Assembly (NCBI GenBank): GCA_021810105.1
Contig: JAJZJM010000001.1
Location: forward strand, 186,001-250,000
Direction: 5' to 3'
DNA from: Microcaldota archaeon
GTDB taxonomy: Archaea; Micrarchaeota; Micrarchaeia; Micrarchaeales; Micrarchaeaceae
DNA length: 64,000 nucleotides
The notes beneath the pieces are model-generated. The model saw only the letters and a program-made list of their open reading frames with translations, ran no database searches and was not told where the DNA came from. Both the position numbers and the translations under genes were made by a program. Below, in pieces: positions 3,825 to 7,648 of the stretch (within the stretch, counting starts at the first letter, position 1; every line of letters starts with the position of its first letter).

Positions 3825-3922
3825 TCCCGTTGGAGCGAGTCGAACGCCCAACCTGTCGGTATCTAACAGCAATGCTGTAATGCAGACTACAGCCGACCGC
3901 TCTGCCATTGAGCTACAACGGG
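3825..3922 (-). tRNA. tRNA-Tyr (GTA) with 26-nt intron
   Basis: The acceptor CCCGTTG/CAACGGG gives the C1-G72 pair that marks archaeal tRNA-Tyr, with discriminator A. Anticodon stem is GTCGG/CCGAC; the loop reads C-T-G-T-A-G and then a 26-nt insert (3861-3886) before the last loop base, which is the canonical archaeal intron site after position 37. The insert contains a small hairpin (CAGC/GCTG), as expected for a bulge-helix-bulge intron cut by the tRNA splicing endonuclease. Mature length is 72 nt; no CCA is encoded. Confidence 0.93.
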
Positions 3923-6801: not shown

Positions 6802-7101
6802 TCAGCCCTTGCGGATTATGCGCAGCACCTTTCCAAAGATGGCAGCCCTGCTTATATATCCAAAACTCCTGCTATCCTCACTCTCCTTTGCATTATCACC
6901 TGTGACATAGAACATGCCGTTTCTTTCATGTGCGATTCTTTTAACAATAAGCATGCCGTTTAATGGGTGCTTAAGGACTATTATTTCGCTCGGCTTCGGG
7001 GAATTGAATAAATAAGAGACTCTGCTAACTATGATATAATCCCCATCATTGAGCGAGGGCTGCATGCTTTTGTCTTTGACCTTGAATATCGCTATAGGCA
7101 T
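6802..7101 (-). CDS. sodX: S26-family peptidase, probable NiSOD maturation protease
   Basis: This 99-residue protein has the signal-peptidase-like catalytic core: KSMQPSLNDGD with the nucleophilic serine at residue 12, and IVKRIAHERNG with the general-base lysine at residue 54, then VTGDNAKESEDSR. It has no transmembrane anchor, unlike ordinary signal peptidase I. It lies 11 bases downstream of the nickel superoxide dismutase gene on the same strand. In bacteria such a small peptidase (SodX) removes the NiSOD leader so that the new N-terminal histidine can bind nickel; the pairing here makes that role very likely. The assignment rests on catalytic motifs plus context. Confidence 0.85.
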   Translation of the reverse strand: MPIAIFKVKDKSMQPSLNDGDYIIVSRVSYLFNSPKPSEIIVLKHPLNGMLIVKRIAHERNGMFYVTGDNAKESEDSRSFGYISRAAIFGKVLRIIRKG

Positions 7102-7112
7102 CGATCTCTACG

Positions 7113-7610
7113 CTATTGCAGCTTTGGCAAAACTATTTCCTTCTCTGTAGGATATGGGGCCTTTACTCTGATAGTTTGAACGTTCTTTGTCTTCCAAAAT
7201 ATCTCTGCAAATTTGTTTACTTTCTCGAGGAGCGCATCTCCATCAGCAATATTAGTGCTCTGCTTCGCTTTTGATGCAGCCTTCATTATATCCCACACAA
7301 GCGCGTGCATCTCCGGGTTTGCCTGAGCGTGCTCTGGCTTGAAATAGTCACCCCATATTACACGGATCTCATGCTTGCATATCTCTGCATGCTGTTCCTT
7401 AACTGCAGTGTACCTTATCATTTTGTTCCTGCCTTCAGGAGTCATATCATTGCTTTTCACAAGGTCTGCGATCAGCATGTCCATACGTATTACAGTATGG
7501 GCAGCAACTAAAGCAAGATGCGGGTCGTATATTCCACAAGGTATGTCGCAGTGCGCGCTCACTGTCTTGAAATGCGCAACTTTATCTATCGCTTCAAATA
7601 ATCTGTACAT
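7113..7610 (-). CDS. sodN: Nickel superoxide dismutase precursor
   Basis: The 165-residue protein carries the diagnostic nickel hook HCDIPCGIYDP at residues 20-30, preceded by a 19-residue leader that must be cut before His20. His1 and Cys2/Cys6 of the mature protein bind nickel in this family, which dismutates superoxide to oxygen and peroxide as a homohexameric four-helix bundle. The rest is helical, with conserved-looking HTVIRMDMLIADL and an acidic/aromatic C-terminal part. The protein has no secretion signal and should be cytosolic. The next gene downstream encodes the S26 peptidase. A TATA box at 7640-7648 and GGTGGTG just before the ATG support this start. NiSOD is mainly known from bacteria, so an archaeal copy is notable. 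Confidence 0.95.
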   Translation of the reverse strand: MYRLFEAIDKVAHFKTVSAHCDIPCGIYDPHLALVAAHTVIRMDMLIADLVKSNDMTPEGRNKMIRYTAVKEQHAEICKHEIRVIWGDYFKPEHAQANPEMHALVWDIMKAASKAKQSTNIADGDALLEKVNKFAEIFWKTKNVQTIRVKAPYPTEKEIVLPKLQ

Positions 7611-7639
7611 TGCACCACCAACAAAGATACATTGTTTTT

Positions 7640-7648
7640 ATTTATAAG
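7640..7648 (-). promoter_or_regulatory. TATA box of sodN-sodX
   Basis: Read on the minus strand the site is CTTATAAAT. Its centre is about 26 bases upstream of position 7618 and 34 bases upstream of the sodN ATG, the right spacing for archaeal TBP/TFB promoters with a short leader containing GGTGGTG. Confidence 0.6.

What the first reader, a model, noticed from the sequence alone, without database searches (positions are those of the whole stretch)
6802..7610. Archaeal nickel superoxide dismutase with its own maturation protease
Seen: a NiSOD nickel hook HCDIPCGIYDP after a 19-residue leader, and 11 bases downstream a 99-residue S26 peptidase with serine 12 and lysine 54 but no membrane anchor. 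Known: NiSOD (sodN with sodX) is typical of actinobacteria, cyanobacteria and other bacteria; other archaea mainly use Fe/Mn SOD or superoxide reductase. Inference: the pair was acquired from bacteria and gives nickel-based superoxide defence. The neighbouring AAA+ gene and base composition do not look foreign, so the transfer may be old or the genes have adapted.
Basis: partly seen in the sequence, partly recalled or inferred. Interest (0 to 1): 0.75.

Follow-up and report, generated by a model that had tools for sequence, protein, structure and literature searches.

The report
Archaeal nickel superoxide dismutase with protease
A tiny archaeon (Micrarchaeota) carries a nickel-using enzyme against toxic superoxide together with the small protease that should activate it; the pair is real, belongs to a known enzyme family, has long been resident in this archaeal order, and stands in for the iron enzyme that most of its relatives use.

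Summary
Window 7113-7610(-) encodes a nickel superoxide dismutase (SodN) with a 19-residue leader and an intact nickel hook. Eleven bases downstream, 6802-7101(-) encodes SodX, a minimal Ser/Lys S26 protease without a membrane anchor. Both pass curated equivalog cut-offs and both model confidently onto the expected folds.

It is a known kind: NiSOD is already published in several archaeal lineages. I found no earlier description for Micrarchaeota. In the phylum sample, 51 of the 52 NiSOD genomes lie in the window's order, where NiSOD and Fe/MnSOD almost exclude each other (1 genome with both, about 29 expected). The window's genome has no Fe/MnSOD and no superoxide reductase.

'Acquired from bacteria' is only partly supported. 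The nearest relatives are archaeal, Micrarchaeota form essentially one clade, and gene order is conserved in the genus. A bacterial origin is plausible only deeper in the tree, where bacterial sampling is thin.

One unreported trait was found. This SodN belongs to a clade (91 of 137 sampled sequences) marked by a ~22-residue C-terminal tail, predicted as a beta-hairpin and absent from solved NiSODs. It also lacks the Glu17-Arg47 pair that supports the axial histidine in Streptomyces.

The parts
7113..7610 (-). sodN, nickel superoxide dismutase precursor, 165 aa
   Evidence: Pfam Sod_Ni 4.4e-44; TIGR02753 162.5 bits, cut-off 90; best solved relative 1q0d 5.7e-27; AlphaFold model pLDDT 91.8 matches solved NiSODs with TM (by target length) 0.89-0.94
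7554..7610 (-). 19-residue leader MYRLFEAIDKVAHFKTVSA, predicted to be removed before His20
   Evidence: sequence; every relative has a leader ending mostly in A before HCD; A19 conserved in at least 90%
7521..7553 (-). nickel hook HCDIPCGIYDP (His1, Cys2, Asp3, Pro5, Cys6, Tyr9 of the mature enzyme)
   Evidence: Cys2, Asp3, Cys6 and Tyr9 are invariant in 137 of 137 sequences; His1 in 136, the other row starting after it
7116..7184 (-). C-terminal tail after Lys142 (NVQTIRVKAPYPTEKEIVLPKLQ), predicted beta-hairpin; marks the archaea-dominated SodN clade
   Evidence: tail of 20 or more residues in 91 of 91 clade members, 0 of 46 others; strands 146-150 and 158-162, pLDDT about 90-96; Y153, P154, V160, P162 conserved in at least 90%
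6802..7101 (-). sodX, nickel-SOD maturation protease, 99 aa, S26 Ser12/Lys54 dyad, no membrane anchor
   Evidence: TIGR02754 75.7 bits, cut-off 63.25; S12 and K54 invariant in 132 of 132 homologues; model pLDDT 93.1 matches type I signal peptidases
7639..7647 (-). archaeal TATA-like box ttataaata, about 37 nt upstream of the sodN start; probable promoter of a sodN-sodX operon
   Evidence: sequence; TATA-like hexamer at -36 to -38 also in L002, L003, L004, L005, L017, L020, L030, L042
4038..6797 (+). neighbouring double AAA+ ATPase gene, convergent with sodX (context only)
   Evidence: Pfam AAA 1.7e-75, two domains; same neighbour in L002, L003, L004, L005, L007, L011, L014
7809..7880 (-). tRNA-Val(TAC) upstream of sodN (context only)
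   Evidence: ARAGORN

Best explanation
The two genes form a sodN-sodX operon that gives this Micrarchaeota archaeon its only recognisable superoxide-removing enzyme. The precursor SodN is made in the cytoplasm with a 19-residue leader. The soluble S26 protease SodX (Ser12/Lys54) cuts after Ala19 and exposes His1, so that the N-terminal hook (His1, Cys2, Cys6) can bind nickel. The mature enzyme, probably a hexamer of four-helix bundles, dismutes superoxide to oxygen and hydrogen peroxide. The pair has replaced, or been replaced by, Fe/MnSOD in different genera of one family, and has been inherited within this genus at a fixed locus. Shown: gene identities, catalytic and ligand residues, adjacency, conserved promoter-like box, predicted folds, lack of alternative superoxide enzymes in the assembly. 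Inferred: cleavage, nickel binding, dismutase activity, hexamer, operon transcription.
For: Curated family hits over cut-off for both genes. Invariant hook, Arg39, Lys44 and Lys64 equivalents in 137 SodN. SodX directly downstream on the same strand in 43 of 45 Micrarchaeota sequences (one of the other two ends at the contig end) and 109 of 136 loci in all. Folds match solved NiSOD and signal peptidases. The window's genome has no Fe/MnSOD, superoxide reductase. NiSOD and Fe/MnSOD exclude each other in 295 genomes of the phylum: 1 with both, 29 expected, Fisher p 1.7e-20. In the window's genus 8 of 9 genomes have NiSOD (the ninth is 57% complete) and none has Fe/MnSOD. Thirteen other NiSOD-bearing genomes or records across several phyla had no Fe/MnSOD match. 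Syntenic block AAA+ / sodX-sodN / aminotransferase / diphthamide synthase kept down to 63-73% SodN identity.
Against: No activity, metal or cleavage data exist. No NicO or CbiM nickel importer was found, so the nickel supply is unexplained. The genome is 93.6% complete, so absences are not absolute. The Fisher test treats related genomes as independent. Glu17 and Arg47, which hold the axial histidine in the Streptomyces enzyme (PMC5722923), are replaced by Ala36 and His74, so activity cannot simply be assumed to equal that of the model enzyme.
Confidence: 0.9

Rival explanations
1. Recent horizontal transfer from a bacterium into this archaeon.
For: NiSOD is mainly known from bacteria; SodX has the bacterial-type Ser/Lys dyad; in FeSOD-bearing genera of the family the place next to the AAA+ gene holds other genes, so the cassette was inserted there or lost from there; a tRNA gene lies next to sodN.
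Against: Nearest 22 and 44 sequences in the tree are Micrarchaeota apart from one Parvarchaeota-titled MAG; conserved gene order in the genus; GC 44% against 42% for the window and ordinary GC3.
Confidence: 0.05
2. Old transfer: the tail-bearing SodN clade arose in bacteria (for example Chloroflexota or Patescibacteria relatives) and entered DPANN archaea before or at the origin of this order, then spread among DPANN, Thermoplasmatota and Patescibacteria.
For: Bacterial rows surround the 91-row clade in the Streptomyces-rooted tree and a few (L080, L078, L128) lie near its base; archaea as one clade rejected, AU p = 0.025.
Against: Root and donor unresolved; bacterial phyla such as cyanobacteria and most proteobacteria were not sampled; Patescibacteria rows nest inside archaeal ones, so some transfers may run the other way; without the tail columns support falls.
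Confidence: 0.55
3. Bacterial contamination of the assembly.
For: The family is best known from bacteria.
Against: Interior of a 366 kb contig among archaeal genes; the same gene order in independent MAGs; archaeal TATA-like promoter conserved upstream.
Confidence: 0.005
4. The S26 protein is an ordinary signal peptidase that happens to sit beside sodN.
For: It also hits TIGR02227 (bacterial signal peptidase I) at 70.4 bits, cut-off 47.
Against: Best hit is the NiSOD protease equivalog; no membrane anchor; adjacency kept across phyla; shared GDN...S.DSR.FG box in its C-terminal part.
Confidence: 0.03

Closest known systems
Streptomyces coelicolor NiSOD (SodN; PDB 1q0d, 1t6u)
   Same: Hook HCD-PCG-YDP, invariant Tyr9, Arg39, Lys44, Lys64, Lys115 equivalents, four-helix-bundle fold; short leader ending in A before His1.
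   Different: About 40% identity; Glu17/Arg47 replaced by Ala36/His74, Glu19 by His38; longer loop between helices 1 and 2; 22-residue C-terminal tail predicted as a beta-hairpin.
NiSOD of marine group II archaea (PMC10783094) and of Lutacidiplasmatales (PMC9287336)
   Same: Archaeal NiSOD; NiSOD and Fe/MnSOD are alternatives within one lineage (PMC10783094).
   Different: Thermoplasmatota sequences fall into two groups here: a separate 19-row clade (100/100) without the tail and with Ala/Glu at 17/47, and 7 rows inside the window's clade. Which of the two holds the published sequences was not tested by name.
SodX / TIGR02754 NiSOD maturation protease
   Same: Over the curated cut-off; Ser/Lys dyad; adjacent to sodN.
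   Different: Nothing essential; the lack of a membrane anchor is shared by the archaeal homologues aligned.
Fe/Mn superoxide dismutase of other Micrarchaeota (PMC5864196; PMC8773360)
   Same: Same biochemical role.
   Different: Unrelated fold and metal; found in 166 of 295 genomes of the phylum against 52 with NiSOD, both together in one.

Membership tests
Nickel superoxide dismutase (SodN, PF09055 / TIGR02753) | Score over the curated family cut-off | tested here: met
   150.5 bits (cut-off 25) and 162.5 bits (cut-off 90)
Nickel superoxide dismutase (SodN, PF09055 / TIGR02753) | Nickel hook HCxxPCxxY with leader before His1 | tested here: met
   HCDIPCGIY at residues 20-28 after a 19-residue leader
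Nickel superoxide dismutase (SodN, PF09055 / TIGR02753) | Four-helix-bundle NiSOD fold | tested here: met
   Model pLDDT 91.8; top 16 PDB matches are all NiSOD, TM by target 0.89-0.94
Nickel superoxide dismutase (SodN, PF09055 / TIGR02753) | Placed with NiSOD sequences in a family tree | tested here: met
   Inside the 137-sequence SodN tree, nearest rows Micrarchaeota SodN
Nickel superoxide dismutase (SodN, PF09055 / TIGR02753) | Glu17-Arg47 hydrogen-bond partners of His1 (Streptomyces enzyme) | tested here: not met
   Ala36 and His74 instead; only 11 of 137 sequences have the pair, so it does not define the family
Nickel superoxide dismutase (SodN, PF09055 / TIGR02753) | Nickel content, hexamer and dismutase activity | not testable with these tools
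   Needs purified protein
NiSOD maturation protease (SodX, TIGR02754, S26) | Score over the curated cut-off | tested here: met
   75.7 bits, cut-off 63.25
NiSOD maturation protease (SodX, TIGR02754, S26) | Ser/Lys catalytic dyad in an S26 fold | tested here: met
   Ser12 and Lys54 invariant in 132 homologues; model matches signal peptidases
NiSOD maturation protease (SodX, TIGR02754, S26) | Encoded next to sodN | tested here: met
   11 nt downstream; adjacent in 109 of 136 loci
NiSOD maturation protease (SodX, TIGR02754, S26) | Removes the SodN leader before His1 | not testable with these tools
   Needs co-expression

The most novel reading that the evidence does not exclude
This SodN represents a structurally distinct NiSOD subfamily, mostly of DPANN and other archaea and Patescibacteria, in which a conserved C-terminal beta-hairpin has been added and the Glu17-Arg47 support of the axial His1 is absent, possibly replaced by His74/His38 or by the hairpin of a neighbouring subunit. 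Its active site would then be tuned differently from the only structurally studied NiSOD.
Probability: 0.35. Interest if true: 0.5.

Novelty: new member of a known kind. Interest (0 to 1): 0.35.

Why it matters
It shows that nickel-based superoxide defence is an established alternative to Fe/MnSOD across a whole order of reduced-genome archaea, not an isolated import. It offers a natural test of why lineages switch metals. It also supplies a NiSOD subfamily with an unstudied C-terminal hairpin and without the Glu17-Arg47 pair, useful for testing what that pair does. The claim 'new kind' is not warranted.

Tried and rejected
Viral and phage sources of sodN: no relative in viral contigs or phage records. 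Plasmids: only two distant hits. Foreign composition: GC and GC3 ordinary. Dedicated nickel importers of the NicO and CbiM families: none found in the genome; other nickel transporter families were not searched. All archaeal SodN as a single clade: rejected, AU p = 0.025. All Micrarchaeota SodN as a single clade including L028 and L067: borderline, p = 0.048. Tail as a trait independent of the tree: rebuilding the tree without the tail columns gives 2 changes, with one change in 42% of bootstrap trees, so a single origin is likely but not certain. Centring searches on bacterial plasmid loci was not possible, which limited bacterial sampling.

Full report
What is there. The window is an internal part of a 366 kb contig of an 821 kb, 94% complete archaeal genome. 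Its closest relatives are MAGs named Candidatus Micrarchaeota, a phylum that NCBI now calls Microcaldota. At 7113-7610(-) there is a 165-residue SodN: leader MYRLFEAIDKVAHFKTVSA, then HCDIPCGIYDP. At 6802-7101(-), 11 bases further, lies a 99-residue S26 protein. Both exceed the curated cut-offs of the NCBI equivalog models for NiSOD and its maturation protease.

SodN. Cys2, Asp3, Cys6, Tyr9, Arg39, Lys44 and Lys64 (Streptomyces mature numbering) are invariant in 137 aligned SodN, and His1 is present in all but one row that starts after it. The AlphaFold model (pLDDT 91.8) finds only NiSOD entries in the PDB at E below 0.001, TM by target 0.89-0.94. dN of 0.07-0.22 with high or saturated dS shows purifying selection.

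SodX. Ser12 and Lys54 are invariant in 132 homologues and no stretch is hydrophobic enough for a membrane anchor. The model (pLDDT 93.1) matches type I signal peptidases. From general knowledge, archaeal secretory signal peptidases use Ser-His rather than Ser-Lys, so SodX is of the bacterial type. SodX lies immediately downstream on the same strand in 43 of 45 Micrarchaeota sequences; one of the other two is cut off by the contig end. That SodX-type proteases cleave the NiSOD precursor is taken from the literature (cited in PMC8346466), not shown here.

Promoter. A TATA-like box (7639-7647) lies about 37 nt before the sodN start and recurs at the same distance in several relatives. A single sodN-sodX transcript is inferred.

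Distribution. In 295 genomes of the phylum, 52 have NiSOD and 166 have Fe/MnSOD; one genome has both, against 29 expected (Fisher p 1.7e-20, which ignores relatedness). In the window's genus 8 of 9 genomes have NiSOD (the ninth is 57% complete) and none has Fe/MnSOD. All but one of the 52 NiSOD genomes belong to two families of the window's order. The window's genome has no Fe/MnSOD, no superoxide reductase and no NicO or CbiM nickel importer; it has one weak AhpC-type peroxiredoxin match that could remove the peroxide formed. Thirteen NiSOD-bearing genomes or records from several other phyla also lacked Fe/MnSOD.

Origin. In a tree of 137 SodN rooted on the actinobacterial sequences, Micrarchaeota form one clade of 44 rows (99/98; one member is titled Parvarchaeota), with two further Micrarchaeota rows elsewhere. 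This lies in a 91-row clade (100/99) of mostly archaea: DPANN, one group of Thermoplasmatota and one Thaumarchaeota, plus Patescibacteria and a few Chloroflexota and proteobacterial rows. A second Thermoplasmatota group of 19 rows is separate (100/100). One clade for all archaea is rejected (AU p = 0.025). The syntenic block AAA+ / sodX-sodN / aminotransferase / diphthamide synthase / nth is kept in the genus. In FeSOD-bearing genera of the same family other genes sit next to the AAA+ gene, with the aminotransferase or the diphthamide synthase gene still close by in some of them (read from the translations). So the pair has long been in the lineage. An older exchange with bacteria is likely, but donor and direction are open, because bacterial sampling was limited to phyla reachable through the tools. 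Retrieval by similarity to the window protein also enriches for its own clade.

What is unusual. All 91 members of the clade carry a tail of at least 20 residues after the last helix (consensus KAPYPTxxExVxPK) and none of the 46 others does. It is predicted with high confidence as a beta-hairpin, and the solved NiSOD sequence used as reference ends two residues after Lys115. Rebuilding the tree without the tail columns gives two changes, one in 42% of bootstrap trees. Further, Glu17 and Arg47, which form the hydrogen-bond triad with the axial His1 in Streptomyces (PMC5722923), are here Ala36 and His74. Across 137 sequences Glu17 occurs if and only if Arg47 does (11 sequences); the rest have Ala, Ser or Gly with His, Glu or Tyr. 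The pair is therefore a feature of one bacterial branch in this sample, and its loss is not peculiar to archaea.

Novelty. Archaeal NiSOD is published for marine group II and mentioned for several DPANN groups (PMC10783094) and for Lutacidiplasmatales (PMC9287336). Micrarchaeota were described as having Fe SOD (PMC5864196, PMC8773360). No paper in the library links NiSOD to Micrarchaeota genomes (the single text match is a community metagenome gene list). The finding is a new member of a known kind, with a clade-level structural addition worth testing.

Noticed in passing
L111-L112 and G026, G042 (genus g5): Within one genus of the window's family most genomes have NiSOD, but G026 has Fe/MnSOD instead and G042 matched neither, suggesting a recent switch of SOD type.
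   Followed up: partly
L012 and L033 (same MAG clean1832); L059 and L077 (MAS1.bin30); genomes G111 and G188: Some Micrarchaeota assemblies hold two different sodN copies, which may be true paralogues or mixed strains.
   Followed up: no
L137 and L142 (Patescibacteria): NiSOD hooks without the usual Pro5: HCDLACG and HCDLMCG; both retain Cys2, Cys6 and Tyr9.
   Followed up: no
SodN residues 36 and 74 (window 7503-7505 and 7389-7391): Strict pairing across the family: Glu17 is present only with Arg47; all other NiSODs sampled have a small residue at 17 with His, Glu or Tyr at 47.
   Followed up: partly
window 3825-3922 (-): ARAGORN reports a tRNA-like gene with a four-base anticodon (ctgc) and no assigned amino acid; possibly an intron-bearing or spurious call.
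   Followed up: no
L168, L169, L171, L173, L178, L179 downstream of the AAA+ gene: In related genera the gene convergent with the AAA+ ATPase encodes a 230-310 residue protein with a shared N-terminal motif (GMITRxxA) instead of sodX-sodN.
   Followed up: partly
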